From assembly GCA_009693165.1 (NCBI GenBank), contig SHXX01000008.1, forward strand, positions 1 through 48,500: a stretch of DNA of 48,500 nt, in the 5' to 3' direction. Source of the stretch: Chloroflexota bacterium (GTDB lineage Bacteria; Chloroflexota; UBA11872; UBA12225). Shown in pieces: positions 33,430-48,500 of this stretch. The position numbers and the translations under genes were made by a program. Below the pieces are notes generated by a model. That model was not told the origin of the DNA and did not search any database. It saw only the letters and a list, made by a program, of their open reading frames with translations. Position 1 is the first letter of the stretch, and every line of letters starts with the position of its first letter.

Positions 33430-33515
33430 TGGTGCGGAAGGCGGGAGTCGAACCCGCACGCCTTGGGAGGCACAAGTTCCTAAGACTTGCGTGTCTGCCA
33501 TTCCACCACTTCCGC
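33430..33515 (-). tRNA. tRNA-Leu (UAG anticodon)
   Basis: The acceptor stem GCGGAAG pairs with CTTCCGC, with discriminator A and a genomically encoded CCA (33432-33430). The anticodon arm is CAAGT-CTTAGGA-ACTTG, giving anticodon UAG (33482-33480), which reads CUN leucine codons. A long variable arm (TGCCTCCCAAGGCGT) and a TTCGACT T-loop mark a class II tRNA. It follows the rRNA terminator by about 60 bases, so it is probably not part of the rRNA transcript. Confidence 0.95.
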
Positions 33516-33576
33516 GCACCGTCAGTCTACCTTGCGAAAGTCAAGACCTGACCACTGATGTACCAATGGCCAACGC

Positions 33577-33604
33577 AAAACGCCCCATCGAAACCGATGA
33601 GGCG
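33577..33604 (-). terminator. Rho-independent terminator of the rRNA operon
   Basis: In the minus-strand RNA, CGCCTCATCG pairs with CGATGGGGCG (ten pairs, one G-U) around a GTTT loop, followed by TTTT. It lies about 100 bases after the 23S 3' end. Confidence 0.8.
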
Positions 33605-33705
33605 TAGGCGAACCAGACGACATTCGATGTTGGCCACCCCAGATGAGCCGGGGTATGGAGATAGTTGCCGGAACCCAACCAGTCTGATGCTGGCTCACAA
33701 GAAAA

Positions 33706-36727
<3,022 letters not shown>

Positions 36728-37158
36728 TGCCTTCTAATTGCGAACCGTTGTTGCGTCACACCAGTTGAAGTGTCCGAACAACATCATCACCATACGCCCG
36801 GCACATCTGCTGTGCGCCGGCGCGCTCATCATCTAGCTGCCCATTGCCGTCTCGTTGCCTCGCAATTGCGGGTCGGATCGGGTGGCAGCGATGTGGCAAA
36901 AACCTACCATCGCATGTCGTATCTGGTTGTCAAGGTGCAACGCCGGACCACAAAGTGATCCGGCGTCTCTTGGGTCGCAGCGACTTAACGTCACCGCCAC
37001 CGCTGAAGCGTGGAAGGAAGCGCAGGCCATGAGACTGAGCCCGCGAGATCAGGCAGATACGTACTGGTCAGCAAGGGCTGCCGGTCGCTCTGATCGACCT
37101 GGAAGTCGTGAAGCCTCCTACCGCGACCAAGTCGGGTGGGGTCACTGCACTCCGTAAG
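36728..37158 (-). other. 16S-23S internal transcribed spacer without tRNA genes
   Basis: About 430 bases. I searched by eye for the T-loop and CCA patterns of tRNA-Ile and tRNA-Ala and found neither. It contains the 3' arm of the 16S processing stem (37003-37021), a hairpin of 11 pairs with a TTT loop (36941-36965), and a CCGGCGCAC hairpin near 36810. Confidence 0.75.
37003..37021 (-). other. 16S processing stem, 3' arm
   Basis: In the minus-strand RNA this reads GCTTCCTTCCACGCTTCAG, the exact complement of 38855-38837 in the leader. The two arms form 19 perfect base pairs around the 16S gene, the expected RNase III processing helix. I saw no equivalent stem around the 23S gene. Confidence 0.7.
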
Positions 37159-38702
<1,544 letters not shown>

Positions 38703-39043: not shown

Positions 39044-39073
39044 ATGGTAGCCCGTCCGGTTTTCGGCTGTCAA
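39044..39073 (-). promoter_or_regulatory. rRNA operon promoter
   Basis: On the minus strand, the consensus -35 box TTGACA (39073-39068) is followed after 18 bases by the -10 box TACCAT (39049-39044). An A-rich stretch (GCGAAAACGC) lies just upstream and could act as an UP element. The -35 box covers the stop codon of the upstream glycoside hydrolase gene (39072-39070). Confidence 0.7.
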
Positions 39074-40308
39074 GCGTTTTCGCGATATTGGCCGCTTTGG
39101 GGCGGATTTGGCTGGTTGTGGGCCGCGGTGCCCATTCTGGCCCGCTCGGCAGCAAATGCCTCGTGGATGGGGCGAAACGGCCTTCTAGAAAGAAGTCCGT
39201 CATGTTCTTCCATGTCCCAGAAACCGAAATGCATCCAGTGCCGCTCGTGCCACTCGTGCCACTCGGTCATATCGACCAGTGGGTAGAAACAGACCCCAGC
39301 GATCGGAATGCCGCTTGCCACGGCCGCCCGGACCTCCTCGGCGATCATCCTGAGCCATGGGACCCGCAAATCTCCCCAGCAACCCGTCTCTGTCACCAGT
39401 ATCGGATGCCCCGGATACCGGGACGCGACCTCTCCAAGCATCTCGCGGAACGGCCGCCGCCGAGGATCGTCAAACGCCAGATGTCCGCCTCGCCGGTGTT
39501 CCCACTGTCCAGTGAGGTAGTAGTTCACTCCAATCACATCGAGGAGATCCGCCCGACCTCCAAGGTCAGACCAACCGCGGCCGCCGAGCATGTCCCAGGC
39601 TTGCCATTGGTAGCCCGTGAACTCGGCGGCCTCGGCGGCGAGTTCGGGTGCATCACAAGGCGCAACGGCGTGGCAAACCGGATCGACGTTCACGAACCGT
39701 GCCTCAGGATCGACGGCACGGATCGCTTCCATGCCAACGATTGCCGTTCGTGCGAGCTTCATCTTGAGTTCGTAGCCGCGCCCTTTTCCATAGGGAGCGA
39801 ACCAACCAACTTCACCGGCTGCCCAAGCGAGGAAACTCGGTTCGTTGACGGGCGTGTACCACTGTCCGGGGCCATCCAGGCTGACCAGATAGCGGGCAAC
39901 CGTGGCCGCATACCTAGCGAACCGTTCGGCGAATGCCTCGCAGAATGGATCGAGGTCTTCGGGGTACCCATAATGCAAGAGATCCCAGACGACCCTCTGC
40001 CCGTGGCGTAAGGCCGCATCACGGATGGTCCGGACTGGCCCAATGTCAACCGTGCCACCGGCGTCAACCCGGTCCCATGCAATCCCTTCCCGAATGACCA
40101 CCATCCCCAGATCCCGCGCCCCCGCCAGGTCCTCGTCGAGAAATCGATCATGCTGGGTCTCAGCGACGAGGTTTCGCCTCACCCCTTGACGATCCAACTG
40201 GCTGGAACACTCGTAGCCCCCGAAGTAGAACCCAGGGATGGTGATCGGAGGCCGGATGATCGGCGGAAGCCTATCCTCATCTTGTGTGGCGGTATCGTTC
40301 CTGTCCAA
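39070..40308 (-). CDS. Clan GH-A glycoside hydrolase (beta-glucosidase-like)
   Basis: A 412 aa (beta/alpha)8 glycosidase resembling GH1 and related families. The acid/base motif is WYTPVNEPSFLAW (about residue 160) and the nucleophile motif is HPILVTETGCWGD (about 310). Other typical segments are FYFGGYECSSQ near the N-terminus and GVNYYLTGQW. There is no signal peptide, so it is probably cytoplasmic. The start is TTG at 40308: an in-frame TGA lies only four codons upstream, and no ATG or GTG occurs before the conserved N-terminus. It ends inside the rRNA promoter, and is transcribed toward the rRNA operon. Substrate specificity is not clear; database names for this group include beta-glucosidase. 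Confidence 0.75.
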   Translation of the reverse strand: MDRNDTATQDEDRLPPIIRPPITIPGFYFGGYECSSQLDRQGVRRNLVAETQHDRFLDEDLAGARDLGMVVIREGIAWDRVDAGGTVDIGPVRTIRDAALRHGQRVVWDLLHYGYPEDLDPFCEAFAERFARYAATVARYLVSLDGPGQWYTPVNEPSFLAWAAGEVGWFAPYGKGRGYELKMKLARTAIVGMEAIRAVDPEARFVNVDPVCHAVAPCDAPELAAEAAEFTGYQWQAWDMLGGRGWSDLGGRADLLDVIGVNYYLTGQWEHRRGGHLAFDDPRRRPFREMLGEVASRYPGHPILVTETGCWGDLRVPWLRMIAEEVRAAVASGIPIAGVCFYPLVDMTEWHEWHERHWMHFGFWDMEEHDGLLSRRPFRPIHEAFAAERARMGTAAHNQPNPPQSGQYRENA

Positions 40309-40486: not shown

Positions 40487-42031
40487 GTGAGAGCAACAGG
40501 TCCTTCCAACCCGGTTGGCGTCTTTCGTGTCCGCAAAGAATTCGCGTCGGTCACCTTGGCGATCGGAATTTCCGTGTTCCTTATATGCGCGCTGCCGATC
40601 GCTGACTACCTCGCCGACTGGAGCGCCCTGGCTGACATCGCCACTGGTTTGGCCGTCTCGCTTTCATTCCTGTTCATCGCGATTTCATCAGCCTTCTCTA
40701 GCCTCAAGACGGGTCAAACGGTTCTCCCGTCAATCACCACCCACACGTACCCCGAAACCCGACGAACTAGGAACGTCACTCCATTCACGGTGCTGATCCT
40801 CATGGCGGTGCTTGGTCTCTGCAGTCTTGAGTGGTATCTGCACCGCGACGACCGGAACCCGTTCCTTGCAAGCAGCCGTCCCGAGGCCAACGAGGACACG
40901 TGGCTGACCGCGGACGGGTACGCGATGCTTCTTGACGGCCACATCGCTCAGAACGATGGGACATTTCTGCTCCCCATGCTGCGCATGTTCACCGGCGACG
41001 CCCGCCCCGAACCGAGCGAGTTTGACGCGCGAGCTGGCCATCTATATGTAGTGTCATTCCTCGTCCCGTGGCTTGGAACTTATTGGGCGTTTGCCGGGAC
41101 CAATCTTGTCTTCTGGTGGCTCGCAGTCGTCTCTGTATGGTGGCTTGGGATCCGCCATTGGTCCGAAAAATCTATCGGCGTAATTGGGGCAGTCCTGGTA
41201 GCTACAAGCCAAGGGTTCATTTTCATGGGGACTGCACCCCAACCCCATGCCGTCGCGTATGCAGTGTTCGGCGTTCTGCTCGTCGTTCACGACCTGTTGC
41301 TCAATCGGCAACTCGACACCTCCGCGAGCAAGGCGGTTCGGTTCGGATGGGCCACAGGTGCATCTGGACTGATCTATTTCGTCCACGTTCCGTCGCTGAT
41401 TTACCTATGGCTCGTGATGCCTTTACGGACACACTGGCGGGCGATGGTGGTCGGTACTTTTACAACTCTTTCAATACTCGCTTTTTGGCAAGTTATCGGG
41501 TCATATTTAGGTTTGTCTTTTTCTGGCGGAAATAGCGCCCTAGCGACAGAGGCTATCGCAAATTGGATGGTTGTCGTCCGAGGCGGCCTTCAGAACATCG
41601 CCTCCTGGGGGCATTACTCGCGCCCCAGAGGAACTCTCCTTGGCGCGTTTTGGTATCCGTGGTGGATCCTGGCGGCGATCGGATGGTGGAAATCGCCTCG
41701 GATCGCACGAAACTGGGCCATGGTCGTCCTGATCGCCGCATTCGCGCCAGCACTGCTCTTCACCACTCGCTTCCAGCTTCCTCGGGTGGCCTTCTTCGCG
41801 TATCCCGGCATGCTTCTCCTCGCTAGTGTCGGCATCGATGAAATCGCGAATGTAGGTTCCCGGATTGTGTCCTCCTTCGTATTGGGGACCGCTGCCGTGA
41901 GACGCGCGGCCTACATCGCAACCGTCATCACTATCCTTATGGCGCTTGCGACGGTCACGAACCGCGACTTGATTACCGGGTCACTACGGTTCGCCGTGAA
42001 CTTCCACTATGCACTGGGAACCGAATGGTGA
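40487..42031 (+). CDS. GT-C-like polytopic membrane protein, cassette 1 gene A (A1)
   Basis: A 514 aa integral membrane protein with about 12 hydrophobic segments. I do not recognise a named family; the topology resembles GT-C glycosyltransferases that use polyprenyl-phosphate sugars. A large extracytoplasmic loop after the third segment holds NPFLASSRPEA, the acidic motif TADGYAMLLDGH (about residue 140-152) and FDARAGHLYVVSFL. Later conserved blocks are ATSQGFIFMGTAPQPHA, GLSFSGGN, GAFWYPWWILAAIG and FQLPRVAFFAYP. All of these recur in the paralogue A2 at 42890. Its stop codon overlaps the B1 start (GTGA). The start is GTG at 40487, without a strong binding site. A patch near 41460-41530 is AT-rich compared with its surroundings. 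Confidence 0.75.
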   Translation: MRATGPSNPVGVFRVRKEFASVTLAIGISVFLICALPIADYLADWSALADIATGLAVSLSFLFIAISSAFSSLKTGQTVLPSITTHTYPETRRTRNVTPFTVLILMAVLGLCSLEWYLHRDDRNPFLASSRPEANEDTWLTADGYAMLLDGHIAQNDGTFLLPMLRMFTGDARPEPSEFDARAGHLYVVSFLVPWLGTYWAFAGTNLVFWWLAVVSVWWLGIRHWSEKSIGVIGAVLVATSQGFIFMGTAPQPHAVAYAVFGVLLVVHDLLLNRQLDTSASKAVRFGWATGASGLIYFVHVPSLIYLWLVMPLRTHWRAMVVGTFTTLSILAFWQVIGSYLGLSFSGGNSALATEAIANWMVVVRGGLQNIASWGHYSRPRGTLLGAFWYPWWILAAIGWWKSPRIARNWAMVVLIAAFAPALLFTTRFQLPRVAFFAYPGMLLLASVGIDEIANVGSRIVSSFVLGTAAVRRAAYIATVITILMALATVTNRDLITGSLRFAVNFHYALGTEW

Positions 42032-42801
42032 TCGATCTTCTCGGCAACAGCCTGGACCGGAAACCCCGAGTGATCATGATGGCCCGAGGCATCACCCTTG
42101 CCGCAATCGCCATCCAACTGGTCGCACCGACGTTCGAGGCATTTGTCTTCCGATTAACCTTCGCGACGATCTACGGGATTGGCGCACTTGTCATTGCCGG
42201 CCGGTCGGCTCCGTTCGTGCAATTGGCCGGTGCGTCGACCTACTTGATTGCAAGCATCGCCAAGAACGTGATCGACCTTCCAGTCGCCGAACCCCCATCA
42301 ACGCTTTGGGGCCAGATCATCGACGACACTCGCCAGGAAGTCGCGCATCGGATCATCCCACCATACGGATCCCGGCAGTGGCAACTGGGTTGGGCGTCGG
42401 ACGGCAAACCGTTCATCTACGTTTGCGCCCGTGGTCGTCTCGAACCCCCCGAGACACTCGTTGTGATGGTAAACGGCTCGGCAATCAGTGAACTCAACAC
42501 TTCCCAGATGTTCGGGCCCCGCCCACAACTCGAAAGTGTTGGCTTCTACCGGATACCGGTCCTACGAGACCTGTTCAATGGTTCACCGGCCCTGGATATC
42601 CAAGTCCGACGCGACGTACGGGCAACCCTGCCTATGGAGATTTGCGGCACCATCACGGCGCGACCGACAGCCGGTTTCGAGAGCAGCCGGTTCTTCGACG
42701 GAACGTCGTGGATATCGCCGTGGACAACCCGCCAGGGACGGTTCCAGATCGAGCTGCGTCTCGAAGGCCCCGGTGGCCATGTGTTTGGCGCGTGGTACTG
42801 A
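42028..42801 (+). CDS. Membrane-anchored protein with exported domain, cassette 1 gene B (B1)
   Basis: A 257 aa protein of unknown family. The first ~85 residues contain three or four hydrophobic helices, and the rest is probably an extracytoplasmic beta-rich domain. Blocks shared with B2 are VCAR (VCAE in B2), GFYRIPVLRDLF, MEICGTITARP, SSRFFDGTSWISP, IELRLEG and a C-terminal AWY. The two cysteines (VCA and CGT) are conserved and could form a disulphide. The GTG at 42028 overlaps the A1 stop by four bases (GTGA). The same arrangement, with a G-rich site at the same distance, occurs in cassette 2, which favours GTG over the ATG three bases earlier. Confidence 0.7.
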   Translation: MIDLLGNSLDRKPRVIMMARGITLAAIAIQLVAPTFEAFVFRLTFATIYGIGALVIAGRSAPFVQLAGASTYLIASIAKNVIDLPVAEPPSTLWGQIIDDTRQEVAHRIIPPYGSRQWQLGWASDGKPFIYVCARGRLEPPETLVVMVNGSAISELNTSQMFGPRPQLESVGFYRIPVLRDLFNGSPALDIQVRRDVRATLPMEICGTITARPTAGFESSRFFDGTSWISPWTTRQGRFQIELRLEGPGGHVFGAWY

Positions 42802-42889
42802 AGGCAGTGTGGGACTTACCAACACACGAGCCATCGGTTGCCACTGACTGTTTGCAGACATCGGGACAGTCCACGACCCGTTCAGGGTC

Positions 42890-44482
42890 ATGATTGCACT
42901 GCGCGTGGACCTGACACCTAGATTAGATCAAATCCCGATGAACTTCCAGAACCGGCAACCACTCGGGCCTAGGCGAGACCTCACCGCCGGGGCATGTGCC
43001 TTTGCCATCGCGGGGATCGCAATCAATGCGGTCCGACCCGACGACTCTGTCAGCACGGTTCCACTACTTCTCGACCTCGCCGTGTCACTCTGGGCCACGA
43101 TCTGGGTCGGCGCTTTCGCGGCCATCTCGATCGGATCGGTCAATCCGGGAGTTCGTGGCCTGTTCGGCTCCGACACCCGACTATTTGAACAGGATCCACC
43201 ATCAGGCCCATCTAGCTTTCGCTCAGGCAAGCGCGTTTGGGGGTTCGCGATCCTCCTTGCACTGATCTGCGTCGCCGAATGGGGAACCCACGGCGGCGCG
43301 CGAAACGGCTTCCTAGCGAGCAGCCGGCCCGAAGCAGGCATGGAAGATTGGACCGCTGCTGACGGATACGCGACTGTTCTTGACGGACACCCTGCCCAAG
43401 GCGATGGCCTGTTCCTCCTGAACCTCGTCGGACTGTTCACTGCCGAAAGACCAGCCATATCGGGAGAGTTCGACCGGCGTGCGGGTCATGTTTGGCTAGC
43501 TTCCCTACTCCATCGTCCGTTCGGTTCATACTGGGCTTTTGCCCTTGTGAACCTGGCAGGGTGGTACGCGAGTGCGATTGGTGTCTGGTGGCTCGGGCGT
43601 CGTCGATGGCCTCAGACGTGGACGGGTGAACTTGCCGCACTGATGGTGGCGACTGGTCAGGGGTTCATCTTCATGAGCACAGCCCCACAAGCCCATCCAG
43701 CCGCATTCGGTGCCTTCGTGATCGGCCTGATGGTATTTGACCACCTGAACTTGTGGTCCGTGGTCCAGACGAGACGCGAACAGTGGGCAGCCATCCTAGG
43801 TTCGGCGTGGATGACAGGCATTGCGGGACTGCTGTATTTCGGACACATTCCGCTACTTCTCACTACCTGGATCTTTGGAGGTCCAAGGATGCGCGTGCAG
43901 CCCCTACTCGCGGTATCGGCTGGCGCACTTGCAATAGTGACCGCGTGGCAGGTTGTTGGCGAGAACCTGCTTGGCCTGCGTTTCAGTGGCGGGAACAATG
44001 ACCTGGCAGGTGGAGCGATCCGGATCTGGCTTCGGATCATCTCCGAGGGAGCTTGGTCGCTCCGGTGGCAGTTCCACGCCGGATCAATCAGGGGGCTCCT
44101 GGTCGGCGCGTTCTACTACCCATGGTGGATCCTCGCCATCATCGGCATCTTTGCATCACCACGCAGATCCCGCACGTGGGCACTATGCATCCTCGCGGGC
44201 ACATTGCTCCCCGCGATCGCGTTCGCACCCCAGTTCCGGCTACCGCGCGCCGCATACTTCGCGTTTCCCGCGGTCTACCTTCTTGCGGGCGCCGCCCTCT
44301 ACATGATCAGCCAGGCGATCGCGACTCGCTTCGCTACACGAAGCGATCACTGGAGGACGGCCGCCGGGTTGGTTGCCTGTGCAGTCGTCATCGCCGGCCT
44401 CGCGACCCTCACCAACCTCGACCTCACCGGCGATCAGACCTTCAACGTCTGGTTCCACGAGGCGCAGGGGAACAGTTGGTGA
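42890..44482 (+). CDS. GT-C-like polytopic membrane protein, cassette 2 gene A (A2)
   Basis: A 530 aa paralogue of A1 with the same topology. Shared blocks include NGFLASSRPEAGMEDWTAADGYATVLDGHPAQ (about 138-170), FDRRAGHVWLASLL, GSYWAFALVN, ATGQGFIFMSTAPQAHP, LRFSGGNNDLA, GAFYYPWWILAIIG and FRLPRAAYFAFP. The Asp in ADGY, next to conserved His and Asp in LDGH, is the best candidate for a catalytic or metal-binding site in the exported loop (inference, from GT-C enzymes). The start at 42890 is uncertain; an ATG at 42938 is possible. It follows B1 by 88 bases and is coupled to B2. Confidence 0.75.
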   Translation: MIALRVDLTPRLDQIPMNFQNRQPLGPRRDLTAGACAFAIAGIAINAVRPDDSVSTVPLLLDLAVSLWATIWVGAFAAISIGSVNPGVRGLFGSDTRLFEQDPPSGPSSFRSGKRVWGFAILLALICVAEWGTHGGARNGFLASSRPEAGMEDWTAADGYATVLDGHPAQGDGLFLLNLVGLFTAERPAISGEFDRRAGHVWLASLLHRPFGSYWAFALVNLAGWYASAIGVWWLGRRRWPQTWTGELAALMVATGQGFIFMSTAPQAHPAAFGAFVIGLMVFDHLNLWSVVQTRREQWAAILGSAWMTGIAGLLYFGHIPLLLTTWIFGGPRMRVQPLLAVSAGALAIVTAWQVVGENLLGLRFSGGNNDLAGGAIRIWLRIISEGAWSLRWQFHAGSIRGLLVGAFYYPWWILAIIGIFASPRRSRTWALCILAGTLLPAIAFAPQFRLPRAAYFAFPAVYLLAGAALYMISQAIATRFATRSDHWRTAAGLVACAVVIAGLATLTNLDLTGDQTFNVWFHEAQGNSW

Positions 44483-45231
44483 CAAACCGTCAATTTGGTT
44501 GCATGTCGGCAGGCATCGCTGCGTTGACCTTGGCGGTCGCCCTCACTGACACGCCATGGGAGACTGCCGTCGCACGCGGGTTCTTCGTTGTCAGCATTGG
44601 CTTCGGCCTCATAGCCGGTACCGGACTGATTGGCGCACGCACCCAATTCGCGACCGCGTTCGTCGTCCTAACGCTTGCCGTTGCTCAGCGCCTACCGGGC
44701 CAGGCAGTGTCGAACCCACCATCGCCGAACTGGACACGGACGATTGCAGACACAAATCAAGTTGCCGAACACCGGTTCTCGCTCGCTGAAGCAGCGTGGA
44801 AGAACGCTCTTTCCAATTCAGCAAACACATCTCTTCTCGTCTGCGCCGAGGCAGTCCTCGACCAACCAGATGCGATGACCGTCACGGTCGCAACCAGCAA
44901 CGGAACACTTACGCGGCTCATCGGCGCGGAACACGCCTACGGCGCACATCCGCGTCCTGACCGCGGAGGCTTCTACCGGATACCAATCCAACGCGAACTA
45001 TTCGACCGTGTTGAGGAGGCAACCGTCACGGTCTCTGCAAGCACGACACGCACTCCGCCACTTCGTCTATGCGGGACCCACAGCATCCGTCCCGGCGTTG
45101 ACCCAAACGCAAGCCGGTTCTTCAGCGGGACAGAGTGGGTAGCGCCACCTGGACCAACCAGCCACACCCGGTGGCTCATCGAGTTGAGGCTAGCCGACAA
45201 GGACGGCCGCACGATCCTCGCCTGGTACTAA
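44479..45231 (+). CDS. Membrane-anchored protein with exported domain, cassette 2 gene B (B2)
   Basis: A 250 aa paralogue of B1. Hydrophobic segments lie at about residues 9-75 (MSAGIAALTLAVALT, VARGFFVVSIGFGLIAGTGLIG, TAFVVLTLAVAQ). The exported part has LLVCAEAVLDQ, GFYRIPIQRELF, RLCGTHSIRPG, SRFFSGTEWVAPP, WLIELRLADKDG and the terminal AWY. The GTG at 44479 overlaps the A2 stop codon by four bases. AGGGG lies about 10 bases before it. The conserved Cys pair and the identical coupling to the A gene suggest that A and B proteins act together, perhaps as a complex. Confidence 0.7.
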   Translation: MTNRQFGCMSAGIAALTLAVALTDTPWETAVARGFFVVSIGFGLIAGTGLIGARTQFATAFVVLTLAVAQRLPGQAVSNPPSPNWTRTIADTNQVAEHRFSLAEAAWKNALSNSANTSLLVCAEAVLDQPDAMTVTVATSNGTLTRLIGAEHAYGAHPRPDRGGFYRIPIQRELFDRVEEATVTVSASTTRTPPLRLCGTHSIRPGVDPNASRFFSGTEWVAPPGPTSHTRWLIELRLADKDGRTILAWY

Positions 45232-45277: not shown

Positions 45278-46300
45278 CTACGCCGGTTCGCGTGTCAGGA
45301 CAGTGCGGTACGAGGCACGTTCAACTTTGATCGATCCACCGTGCGCCGCATCGCGTTTGGTTTCACCGACCTTGAACTGGCCAAGCGGGCCTTGTGATCG
45401 CGCCTTCCAGATCTCATTCCCGTCGATTCGGAGACGGATTTCCCTTGGATTGCGGTTGATCTCCCAGTCGTGCATCTTGCCATCGAGGGTCACCTGTGTC
45501 TGGATCTCGTGTCCCTTAACCTGCTTCATCTCATCCGGATACGTGATGTGCAGCCCGTAAGGAACAGCCTGGATCAAGAGTTGCTTGATTTCGGTGATGA
45601 CGAGATAGCCACCGGTCCGGTCAACCTGCGCACGCCAGGAAAGGGTCTCTTCCCGTTCGAGCGTGGCCAAACCAAGAGGTAACCACCACGACTCTCTGAC
45701 ATCAGGTTCCTTGGGTAGGCGTGCAAGGATGTATGAAGTGCCAGTCGGCCCCGCGGTCAGGACCGCCGTTGAACCTTCAACCTTTGCGGTCCCACCATTT
45801 GCCGTCTCCACCTCCCATTGACCGTCAAGTGGGGTCGTGGAGGCAAAGGACGCATTGAAGGCAACCACCGGACCGCCACGCACAATCGGGTTCGCTAGGC
45901 GGACGTAATGGACGGCATCACCGGCAAGCATCACGGCGATTGCACAGTAGACCGGCCATCGCTTTTGCGCACCCACCTGAAGCAGGACAAGAAACCAGAC
46001 CATCATCGCCGACGCACCGCCGAAGATGGCAGTCTTCACATACCGTGATCTGGCTCCATCCGCGATTTCATTCCACGTTACGACCCGCAAACCGACGAGA
46101 ACGACCGTCGCAACCACCACGATTGCAAACGAACGCAGCACCACTGGGTGAATGATTAGATCAACGATTTCCCGGAATGTTGGAAGTCGGTCCTCATCCT
46201 CCGACGTGACCGGGGCCGAGGGTTCGCCAGAGGTCTTGGTCAGGTTGGTGGCACCATCACCCTTGGGTCCTGGACCAGGCGCAGACACGGTCACCGACAT
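45278..46300 (-). CDS. Membrane protein with C-terminal beta-sandwich domain
   Basis: A 340 aa protein. The N-terminus is Pro/Gly-rich and cytoplasmic (about 1-50), followed by three or four hydrophobic helices (about 55-145: SFAIVVVATVVLVGLRVV, TAIFGGASAMMVWFLVLLQVG, CAIAVMLAGDAV) and an exported beta-sandwich-like domain (about 155-335: FASTTPLDGQWEVETANGGTAKVEG, SWRAQVDRTGGYLVITEIKQLLIQ, EIRLRIDGNEIWKAR). The domain resembles DUF1080/LamG-type sandwiches in pattern, but I did not confirm it. The ATG at 46300 follows the upstream stop codon after a single T, with GGGAGGAT as the binding site. Architecture matches the B proteins, although the sequence is different. Confidence 0.7.
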   Translation of the reverse strand: MSVTVSAPGPGPKGDGATNLTKTSGEPSAPVTSEDEDRLPTFREIVDLIIHPVVLRSFAIVVVATVVLVGLRVVTWNEIADGARSRYVKTAIFGGASAMMVWFLVLLQVGAQKRWPVYCAIAVMLAGDAVHYVRLANPIVRGGPVVAFNASFASTTPLDGQWEVETANGGTAKVEGSTAVLTAGPTGTSYILARLPKEPDVRESWWLPLGLATLEREETLSWRAQVDRTGGYLVITEIKQLLIQAVPYGLHITYPDEMKQVKGHEIQTQVTLDGKMHDWEINRNPREIRLRIDGNEIWKARSQGPLGQFKVGETKRDAAHGGSIKVERASYRTVLTREPA

Positions 46301-46301
46301 A

Positions 46302-48500
46302 TCATCCTCCCGAACCGCTCCGCGCGATCCGATCATTCCGCCTATTGAACCACGATATCCCCATGATCGGCACTCCGCATACCGCCCATGCGACCGCAAG
46401 GGTGGCAAATGGGAGGGCTTGATGCGCATACCGGCCCGGAAAGACCCAGGGGTTCGGCACGCCGGCCATGAACGCGTAGAACGGGAGAAGCGTCATCGCA
46501 ATCCCCCAAGGAATGATCCATCGTCCTGAAACCACTGAGAACGCCAGGCCAACCCAGAACAGCACAAGCAGCGCCGGTTGATCCGGAAACAGGATTTCCC
46601 GGAAGATCCTCTCGAAACCGGTTATGGAGTACTGAAGAAACTGCGTGGGCGTGTGGTAGCCGAAGAAGTACGTTATCGGTGAAATCAGCGGGCCAGCCGC
46701 CCAATTGGCAGCATATTCGGCCGCCGACGGAAATCCCGGCGTTCCCATGCGTTCGGGGAACTCAAGGTTCCGGTTTACGGACGCCCCGTACGTTCCCGGC
46801 CAGAATGGATCACCCTGCGTGGCCCAGTACCCGACGTACATCGGCGCCGCGAAACCCAACGCAAGCGCCGCGATCGGAACCCACGTCCGCCAACCCCAAC
46901 GAAACATCGCGGTGAAGGTCCCACCGACCATCGCCACAAGGACCACCATGTCAGCGCGGACGAGGATGACCCCCGCGCCAGCCAATCCTGCAAGGACAAT
47001 TCGCCACCACTCGATAGTTCGCCCGGCAAGTGGCCACCGGTCCCCGATGGGCTCCCGAAACCATTCGCGGAAGTCATCAGCACCTGGACGCCAGAGGTGC
47101 CCTGACGACACCACAAGCACAAGCACGAGAATGAAGCAGGTGACCAGTTCCTCGCGGAGCCCATGGATGGCATTCGACACGTGTGGCACATTGACCGCCA
47201 CGAGAAATCCGCCGACGACACCAACTAGTGGGTTGATCCGGCAAGCGCCTATCAGCACTGTCAGGAACGCCACTGCGCTACTGCACAGGATGGATACCAA
47301 CCTCGCGTGAAACGTCGAAAAGCCGAACGCCGAACCGAACCAGTGGATGACCGCGGGCCAAAGTGGTTCACGACCATTGTGACCGCCGGCATAGAAGACC
47401 GCCGCGAAACTCGCCTGGCGGTCATACCCTGCCTCACCAAGTTCCTTGAGTATCGATACCGTCCGGATCAGAGGCGAGAAGTTCACTTGCTTCTCGGCAA
47501 ACACTCGCGCAATCGCAAGGTAACCCTGCGCGTCCGGAAGGAGAAAGTCGGACCGGACACGGATCAGCGTCTCCCAACGGACCCCGAGTGAAATCATGAA
47601 AACAGACAACGCCCCAAAAATGATCAGCGACGATGGGGATGACACGTATTCCCGACGTCCACCTATTCGGACCAAAACCGCCAGCAGGCACAAGACCAGT
47701 GAAATGGCGGGAAACACGCGAAGCACAAGTTGAACTGTCGTGGTCAGGTCAATCTCCAGTGTGGTCGTCGGACGCACCAAACCGGGAAACAACTCTGCCA
47801 TCGCCTTCCCTGTGCCCCACCCTGTGTCGCACACGAACGCGATGGCGAGTACCAAGCCGGACGCAACAAGTGCCCCCCACCACGCAGATGCGGACCGTGG
47901 AAGCCAGCGACGCAACCCAACATAGGTCGCCAACGCAACCAAGCCACCCCACGGAACAACCGGGAACACCGGGTGGGGTGCAGTCATCGGATCAACAACC
48001 ACGCTGACCACCATCGACGGCAACACCAACATCGGTTCGGAAGCTGTGTTCGTCGCGCGGAACCGAAGAAGGTAATTCGAGGCGTTTCCGACAGATGGCG
48101 TCAGGTCAACCGGTTCACTGCCAACAACATCACCAATCGACCGGTCCGTGAAGACCGGCCAGTATGTCTGTCCGCGGTCGGTAGACACCTCGAGCGCGTT
48201 GGTGAAGACCGTCTCCGGGACTGAACCAACAACCTCACCCTTCTGTAGAAATCGTCGATTGTAGAAGTTTGCCTTGAGCAGCGCGATTGAGCGTGGCGGA
48301 CGGTCAAGCGTGAACGTGATAGCACCAGACGCACCCGGCTTGAGCATCAATCCCCGTTCACCAAGGTCATACCCCTCCAAACCCACAATCCGGGCATCAC
48401 TTATGGAGTAATTAAAGAATGAACTGTAAAGATTGTATTTCTGTGCATCCGGCGGGTCGTCACGAAACCATCCCTGCATCGCATCTGGGTAGAAGGCACC
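46302..48500 (-). CDS. GT-C-like membrane protein (5' end beyond window)
   Basis: At least 732 aa; the frame is open to the window end. The first ~175 visible residues form a beta-rich exported or lumenal domain (DLGERGLMLKPGASGAITFTLDRPPRSIALLKANFY, VFTNALEVSTDRGQTYWPVF). The rest has about 12 hydrophobic segments. The motif LLPDAQGYLAIARVFAE (around residue 325) and YAGGHNGREPLWPAVIHWF (around 375) are typical of ArnT/PMT-like GT-C transferases, in which an acidic residue in the first exported loop is catalytic. It is translationally coupled to the beta-sandwich gene that follows. The function is inferred; the sugar donor and acceptor are unknown. Confidence 0.7.
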   Translation of the reverse strand, partial: GAFYPDAMQGWFRDDPPDAQKYNLYSSFFNYSISDARIVGLEGYDLGERGLMLKPGASGAITFTLDRPPRSIALLKANFYNRRFLQKGEVVGSVPETVFTNALEVSTDRGQTYWPVFTDRSIGDVVGSEPVDLTPSVGNASNYLLRFRATNTASEPMLVLPSMVVSVVVDPMTAPHPVFPVVPWGGLVALATYVGLRRWLPRSASAWWGALVASGLVLAIAFVCDTGWGTGKAMAELFPGLVRPTTTLEIDLTTTVQLVLRVFPAISLVLCLLAVLVRIGGRREYVSSPSSLIIFGALSVFMISLGVRWETLIRVRSDFLLPDAQGYLAIARVFAEKQVNFSPLIRTVSILKELGEAGYDRQASFAAVFYAGGHNGREPLWPAVIHWFGSAFGFSTFHARLVSILCSSAVAFLTVLIGACRINPLVGVVGGFLVAVNVPHVSNAIHGLREELVTCFILVLVLVVSSGHLWRPGADDFREWFREPIGDRWPLAGRTIEWWRIVLAGLAGAGVILVRADMVVLVAMVGGTFTAMFRWGWRTWVPIAALALGFAAPMYVGYWATQGDPFWPGTYGASVNRNLEFPERMGTPGFPSAAEYAANWAAGPLISPITYFFGYHTPTQFLQYSITGFERIFREILFPDQPALLVLFWVGLAFSVVSGRWIIPWGIAMTLLPFYAFMAGVPNPWVFPGRYAHQALPFATLAVAWAVCGVPIMGISWFNRRNDRIARSGSGG

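What the first reader, a model, noticed from the sequence alone, without database searches (positions are those of the whole stretch)
40487..45231. Tandemly duplicated two-gene cassette: GT-C-like membrane protein plus coupled exported-domain partner
Seen directly: A1-B1 and A2-B2 lie head to tail on the plus strand. A1 and A2 share long blocks (SSRPEA...ADGY...LDGH, FIFM-TAPQ-H, FSGGN, YPWWIL). B1 and B2 share VCA, GFYRIP, CGT, SRFF-GT-W and a terminal AWY. Both junctions use the same GTGA overlap with a G-rich ribosome binding site at matching distance. Tight coupling plus duplication of both genes together suggests an obligate A-B pair, perhaps an enzyme with its exported partner that presents or modifies a glycan. 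I know no described system with this exact composition.
Basis: partly seen in the sequence, partly recalled or inferred. Interest (0 to 1): 0.72.

Follow-up and report, generated by a model that had tools for sequence, protein, structure and literature searches.

The report
Two-part membrane sugar-transferase cassette, duplicated
A lake-type Chloroflexota bacterium carries two side-by-side copies of a gene pair that appears to encode a membrane sugar-adding enzyme and a separate, membrane-anchored, probably sugar-gripping partner, an arrangement that is normally fused into one protein or known as two subunits mainly from eukaryotes.

Summary
A1-B1-A2-B2 are four real genes under purifying selection, duplicated as whole pairs before two genera split. 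A has no Pfam or NCBIfam family, but its AlphaFold model matches GT-C glycosyltransferases (AglB, ArnT, Pmt4, STT3, AftA/AftB, ALG12). One extracytoplasmic-loop position is acidic in 26 of 26 A homologues (D172 of A2). B is three N-terminal helices plus an exported beta-sandwich with only weak, CBM/BcsB-like fold matches. Best reading: a lipid-linked-sugar GT-C enzyme whose acceptor-binding module is a separate subunit, a split form of GT-C+CBM enzymes such as EmbC or Citrobacter ORF12. A's fold class is well supported; B's role, donor and acceptor are inferred. New variant of a known kind.

The parts
40487..42031 (+). A1: multi-pass membrane protein, predicted GT-C glycosyltransferase, 514 aa
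   Evidence: 39% identical to A2; fold assignment through A2's model; ortholog start conserved in G001
42028..42801 (+). B1: three N-terminal TM helices plus exported beta-sandwich, 257 aa (alternative ATG at 42025)
   Evidence: model of homologue B2
42028..42031 (+). GTGA overlap of A1 stop and B1 start
   Evidence: sequence, relatives
42938..44482 (+). A2: predicted GT-C glycosyltransferase, 514 aa from the conserved ATG (ORF opens at 42890, 530 aa)
   Evidence: AlphaFold model pLDDT 76, pTM 0.83; Foldseek GT-C matches; start from relatives
44479..45231 (+). B2: three TM helices (3-22, 27-48, 53-69) plus exported beta-sandwich (85-250), 250 aa
   Evidence: AlphaFold model pLDDT 80; Foldseek
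44479..44482 (+). GTGA overlap of A2 stop and B2 start
45278..46300 (-). D: TM helices plus exported ConA/laminin-G-like domain; third component, convergent with B2
   Evidence: alignment; same 11 of 41 genomes as A and B; lies between C and A3-B3 in G005/G006
46302..48500 (-). C: large GT-C-like membrane protein with an exported beta-rich region, cut by the contig end; coupled to D
   Evidence: alignment; GT-C assignment by pattern only (no Pfam match)

Best explanation
A is a GT-C-fold glycosyltransferase that takes a sugar from a polyprenyl-phosphate carrier on the outer face of the cytoplasmic membrane, using an acidic residue in its first large extracytoplasmic loop (D172 of A2) as catalytic base. 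B is its dedicated non-catalytic subunit: three helices pack in the membrane beside A, and the exported beta-sandwich holds the growing or finished surface polysaccharide (or stabilises A), doing the job that a fused C-terminal carbohydrate-binding module does in EmbC or Citrobacter ORF12. The locus encodes two such heterodimers (A1-B1, A2-B2), probably for two linkages or acceptors, plus a second lectin-like subunit D with its own GT-C-like protein C; together they decorate or extend a cell-surface glycan. Shown: gene structure, duplication, co-inheritance, clade distribution. Supported by prediction: GT-C fold of A, topology, beta-sandwich of B. Inferred: lipid-linked donor, physical A-B complex, sugar binding by B, the acceptor, joint action with C-D.
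For: GT-C fold: Foldseek matches with probability near 1.00 for A2's model are GT-C enzymes (AglB E 3e-4, ArnT 6e-4, Pmt4 TM 0.45/0.48, STT3, AftA, ALG12, ALG9; AftB 0.98). EL1 acid: position D172 is D or E in 26/26 A homologues, including distant ones. B: 3 TM then beta-sandwich; fold matches, all weak, include BcsB and CBM36/CBM6-type domains; conserved Cys122/Cys198 fit an exported domain. Pairing: 18/18 strong A genes have B adjacent; B->A order in G005, G009, G010; distance correlation r=0.95, 0 of 20000 permutations, and swapping partners in the window genome lowers it to 0.45; A and B trees recover the same duplicate clades. In another Chloroflexota family an A homologue (E 2e-46) is followed at once by a 3-TM plus beta-domain gene. 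Context: beside a Wzm/Wzt-type ABC exporter in G005 and G006, with GT1/GT2 genes nearby in G005, and next to GT2 genes in G009. The genome encodes a homologue, 52% identical, of a GT2 protein that I read as a polyprenyl-phosphate-sugar synthase.
Against: No sequence match of A to any GT-C Pfam, NCBIfam or PDB entry. TM-scores to GT-C structures are only about 0.3-0.48. B's fold matches have TM below 0.31 by query length and include unrelated beta proteins, so 'CBM' is a guess from architecture. The other-family B is not linked to B by sequence (hhalign E 0.11). No complex was modelled. Pairing has exceptions (one B without A, one A without B).
Confidence: 0.55

Rival explanations
1. B is not a sugar binder but an assembly and stability subunit for A, working like PIG-X/Pbn1 with PIG-M/Gpi14: its exported beta domain and helices clamp the GT-C enzyme.
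For: GPI-MT-I is a GT-C heterodimer with a beta-sheet lumenal partner that docks on the enzyme and is essential (PMC9306709, PMC12653191). Matched A-B distances fit a direct interface. B's fold matches to CBMs are weak.
Against: B has no Pfam match to any such family, three helices rather than one, and its beta domain keeps aromatic residues (W85, W107, Y166, W220). These do not exclude the rival.
Confidence: 0.25
2. B is the acceptor: A glycosylates the exported domain of B, or the pair is a surface glycoprotein with its own transferase.
For: One-to-one pairing and joint duplication.
Against: B is anchored by three helices and conserved in its core rather than in a Ser/Thr-rich tail; A-B sits in polysaccharide export loci in relatives.
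Confidence: 0.07
3. A is a membrane protein of GT-C ancestry that lost or changed catalysis (for example a flippase or receptor) and A-B senses or moves glycans.
For: No characterised sequence homologue.
Against: The single EL1 acid is kept in 26/26 and all four genes are under purifying selection.
Confidence: 0.08

Closest known systems
Citrobacter youngae ORF12 (GT136), GT-C with a C-terminal CBM, in an ABC-transporter polysaccharide locus (PMC11127046)
   Same: GT-C fold, exported beta-rich domain, Wzm/Wzt-type polysaccharide export context
   Different: There the beta domain is fused to the enzyme; here it is a separate three-helix protein. Sequence relatedness was not tested directly.
Mycobacterial EmbC / AftD arabinosyltransferases with lectin-like C-terminal CBMs (PMC3044687)
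   Same: GT-C plus exported carbohydrate-binding beta module needed for chain extension
   Different: One polypeptide and a different sequence family; AftA, AftB and AftD appear only as remote fold matches
GPI mannosyltransferase I: PIG-M/Gpi14 with PIG-X/Pbn1 (PMC9306709, PMC12653191)
   Same: GT-C enzyme with an obligate, separately encoded, membrane-anchored partner whose lumenal domain is beta-sheet
   Different: Eukaryotic; one TM in the partner; no PIG-X or PIG-M Pfam match for B or A
Gtr-type three-component extracytoplasmic glycosylation systems (GtrA/GtrB/Gtr), as described in PMC11127046
   Same: Same assumed donor chemistry with a GT-C end enzyme
   Different: Here the enzyme has a lectin-like partner; the donor synthase and flippase are not in the locus

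Membership tests
GT-C glycosyltransferase superfamily (A) | GT-C membrane fold | tested here: met
   Foldseek: the matches with probability near 1.00 are GT-C enzymes; TM up to 0.45/0.48
GT-C glycosyltransferase superfamily (A) | Acidic residue in the first large extracytoplasmic loop | tested here: met
   D/E at D172 in 26/26 homologues
GT-C glycosyltransferase superfamily (A) | Polyprenyl-phosphate-sugar donor and transferase activity | not testable with these tools
   Only indirect: a 52% identical homologue of a GT2 protein read as a donor synthase exists in the genome
Known sequence families of GT-C (PMT, PMT_2 and other Pfam/NCBIfam models) | Curated profile match | tested here: not met
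   No match except one member to PMT at E=0.67
Carbohydrate-binding module (B) | CBM-type beta-sandwich fold | tested here: inconclusive
   Weak matches to BcsB, CBM36 and CBM6 domains, TM below 0.31 by query length, mixed with non-CBM beta proteins
Carbohydrate-binding module (B) | Sugar binding | not testable with these tools
   Conserved W85, W107, Y166, W220 are suggestive only
PIG-M/PIG-X heterodimer | PIG-X or PIG-M profile match | tested here: not met
   No such Pfam match in any of 16 A or 15 B proteins
GT136 (ORF12) | GT-C and CBM fused in one chain | tested here: not met
   A and B are separate genes in every undamaged case seen

The most novel reading that the evidence does not exclude
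A bacterial class has a modular extracytoplasmic glycan synthase in which GT-C catalytic subunits (A, C) work with separately encoded, interchangeable membrane-anchored lectin subunits (B jelly-roll-like, D laminin-G/ConA-like), so that linkage specificity and acceptor grip evolve by duplicating whole pairs: a bacterial heteromeric GT-C machine not described before.
Probability: 0.35. Interest if true: 0.66.

Novelty: new variant of a known kind. Interest (0 to 1): 0.5.

Why it matters
Heterodimeric architecture is called unusual for a glycosyltransferase (PMC9306709), and GT-C enzymes with a grip on their polymer usually have it fused. A bacterial family with the grip as a separate, co-duplicated subunit gives a natural experiment on what the accessory domain does, adds a GT-C family with no current profile, and gives a first handle on surface glycans of an uncultured Chloroflexota class reported to have the highest share of carbohydrate-metabolism genes in its phylum (PMC10608941).

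Tried and rejected
Pfam and NCBIfam for A, B, C, D: nothing above cut-off. Sequence search of PDB with A and B profiles: nothing for A, and for B two weak helix matches to a photosystem subunit, taken as chance. Viral contigs and plasmids: no relatives of A, so a phage or plasmid origin has no support. Profile comparison of B with D, and of A with C: no detectable homology, so C-D is analogous rather than a shown paralogue of A-B. B-profile hits in other classes (G056, G125) lie on unrelated genes and were rejected as chance. Sigma-70 promoters and terminators in the locus: not above shuffled sequence. A phylum search failed once for machine reasons and was repeated. Literature searches for a bacterial GT-C with a separate CBM subunit found none, in an open-access library only.

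Full report
WHAT IS THERE. The finding is real and its coordinates are right. On the plus strand lie A1 (40487-42031), B1 (42028-42801), A2 (ORF 42890-44482) and B2 (44479-45231). A1 and A2 share 39% identity over 511 residues (E=2e-100); B1 and B2 share 31% over 244 (E=5e-37). Each A stop overlaps its B start by GTGA, which follows from A's terminal Trp codon plus TGA and is kept in 12 of 19 A genes examined. A2's true start is probably ATG 42938, since two close relatives have an in-frame stop just before it. dN/dS against same-genus orthologues is 0.14-0.22 for all four genes, so both copies are maintained.

WHOSE GENES. The window is a 48.5-kb contig of a 2.2-Mb draft genome. Related loci carry Chloroflexota record titles (two are titled Thermoflexus hugenholtzii JAD2), and one of the closest is from MAG UBA2235, the name-giver of class UBA2235 in PMC10608941. 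Next to the cassette are a GH1-like gene (39070-40308, minus) and an rRNA operon (33706-38701, minus).

WHAT A IS. A has no Pfam, NCBIfam or PDB sequence match. A model of A2 built from 16 homologues (pLDDT 76, pTM 0.83) was compared with the PDB: the matches with probability near 1.00 are GT-C enzymes, namely AglB, ArnT, Pmt4, STT3, AftA, ALG12, ALG9 and Pmt1, with AftB at 0.98 and AftD at 0.92. Non-GT-C matches in the list have probability below 0.2. In an alignment of 26 A homologues including very distant ones, D172 is the only position of the first large extracytoplasmic loop (about residues 134-197) that is acidic in all. That is where a GT-C catalytic acid is expected (established for the superfamily; see also D31 of ORF12 in PMC11127046). 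I take 'A is a GT-C glycosyltransferase' as likely (about 0.85); its donor and acceptor are unknown. The genome has a 52% identical homologue of a GT2 protein that I read as a polyprenyl-phosphate-sugar synthase.

WHAT B IS. The model of B2 (pLDDT 80) shows three helices (3-22, 27-48, 53-69) and then a beta-sandwich to the C-terminus. An odd number of helices with a short N-terminus places the sandwich outside; two nearly invariant cysteines (C122, C198) fit that. Fold matches are weak (TM below 0.31 by query length) and mixed: Kex2 P-domain, BcsB, TGF-beta prodomain, collagen-binding and CBM36/CBM6 domains. 'CBM-like' therefore rests on architecture and precedent, not on a clean match.

THE PAIR. 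In the 41 held genomes of the class, A and B occur in the same 11. The 18 A genes with E below 1e-140 all have B next to them. B also lies upstream of A, with close spacing or overlap, in G005, G009 and G010, so the pairing survived a change of gene order. Pairwise A and B distances over 15 pairs correlate at r=0.95 (0 of 20000 permutations reach it); exchanging the two B copies of the window genome drops it to 0.45. A and B trees recover the same A1/B1, A2/B2 and A3/B3 clades (in the B tree one row, G2_B1, was read in the wrong frame and should be ignored). The A1-B1/A2-B2 duplication predates the split of the window's genus from genus g2. In a different Chloroflexota family an A homologue (G183, E=2e-46) is followed at once by a three-TM plus beta-domain gene; its sister G246 has the same arrangement, with the B reading frame apparently broken in the draft. 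That B is not linked to ours by sequence, so there the pair is analogous or too diverged to prove. Exceptions: one B without A beside it and one divergent A without B, both in G005 and both next to D.

A THIRD AND FOURTH COMPONENT. Forty-six bases beyond B2, on the minus strand, are D (45278-46300) and C (46302-48500, cut by the contig end). D has TM helices and an exported domain with a sub-threshold laminin-G match. C is a large membrane protein that looks GT-C-like by pattern (PDAQGYL ... REPLWP) but has no profile match. D occurs in exactly the same 11 of 41 genomes as A and B and in no further genome of a 251-genome phylum sample. In G005 and G006 the genes lie in one same-strand series, C-D-A3-B3 and C-D-D3-A3-B3, with overlapping or adjoining reading frames; in G009 a D-B-A series is seen. 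So the window's locus is one system of two GT-C kinds and two lectin-like partner kinds, not an isolated pair. No sequence homology between B and D or A and C was found.

CONTEXT AND MECHANISM. In G005 and G006 the cassette is a few kilobases from a Wzm/Wzt-type ABC polysaccharide exporter (Wzt with its C-terminal sugar-binding domain), with GT1, GT2 and epimerase genes also nearby in G005; in G009 it is followed by GT2 genes. Citrobacter ORF12 (GT136) is a GT-C enzyme with a fused C-terminal CBM acting on an ABC-exported polysaccharide (PMC11127046), and EmbC uses a C-terminal CBM for chain extension (PMC3044687). The best reading is a split version: A transfers, B grips or stabilises. PIG-M/PIG-X shows that GT-C enzymes can depend on a separate beta-domain partner (PMC9306709, PMC12653191), which supports the rival that B is an assembly subunit rather than a sugar binder.

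VERDICT. New variant of a known kind: an unprofiled GT-C family with a separately encoded, co-duplicated, exported partner.

Noticed in passing
window 45278-48500 (minus): C-D pair: a large GT-C-like membrane protein and a TM protein with an exported laminin-G/ConA-like domain; D homologues sit beside A-B genes in several genomes.
   Followed up: yes
window 33515-38701: 16S and 23S rRNA genes are present, but no 5S rRNA match was found near them; only a tRNA-Leu follows the 23S.
   Followed up: no
window 39070-40308 (minus): A divergent GH1-like glycosidase lies between the rRNA operon and A1 and is kept next to A1 in G001 and G003.
   Followed up: partly
G000:C89:174-1025 (locus L134): A 283-aa protein with a possible Tat-type N-terminus carries only the C-terminal lectin-like part of D and lies near a protein that looks like a GT4 glycosyltransferase.
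   Followed up: no
L102:6665-9891, L101, L043:6461-8892: Distant relatives have the order B->A (with D upstream in L102), so the pair has been rearranged but kept together.
   Followed up: yes
L105:5525-7392 and L104:5391-7860: Further distant A-like genes overlap a small TM protein that lacks the exported beta domain, possibly a reduced partner.
   Followed up: no
L110:7087-8090 and L049:2219-4204: Reading frames of A/B genes look broken or fused in draft assemblies (G246 B; G002 A2/B2); probably assembly errors.
   Followed up: partly
L052, L054: Public records titled 'Thermoflexus hugenholtzii JAD2' hold this cassette; the titles look like mislabelled MAGs.
   Followed up: no
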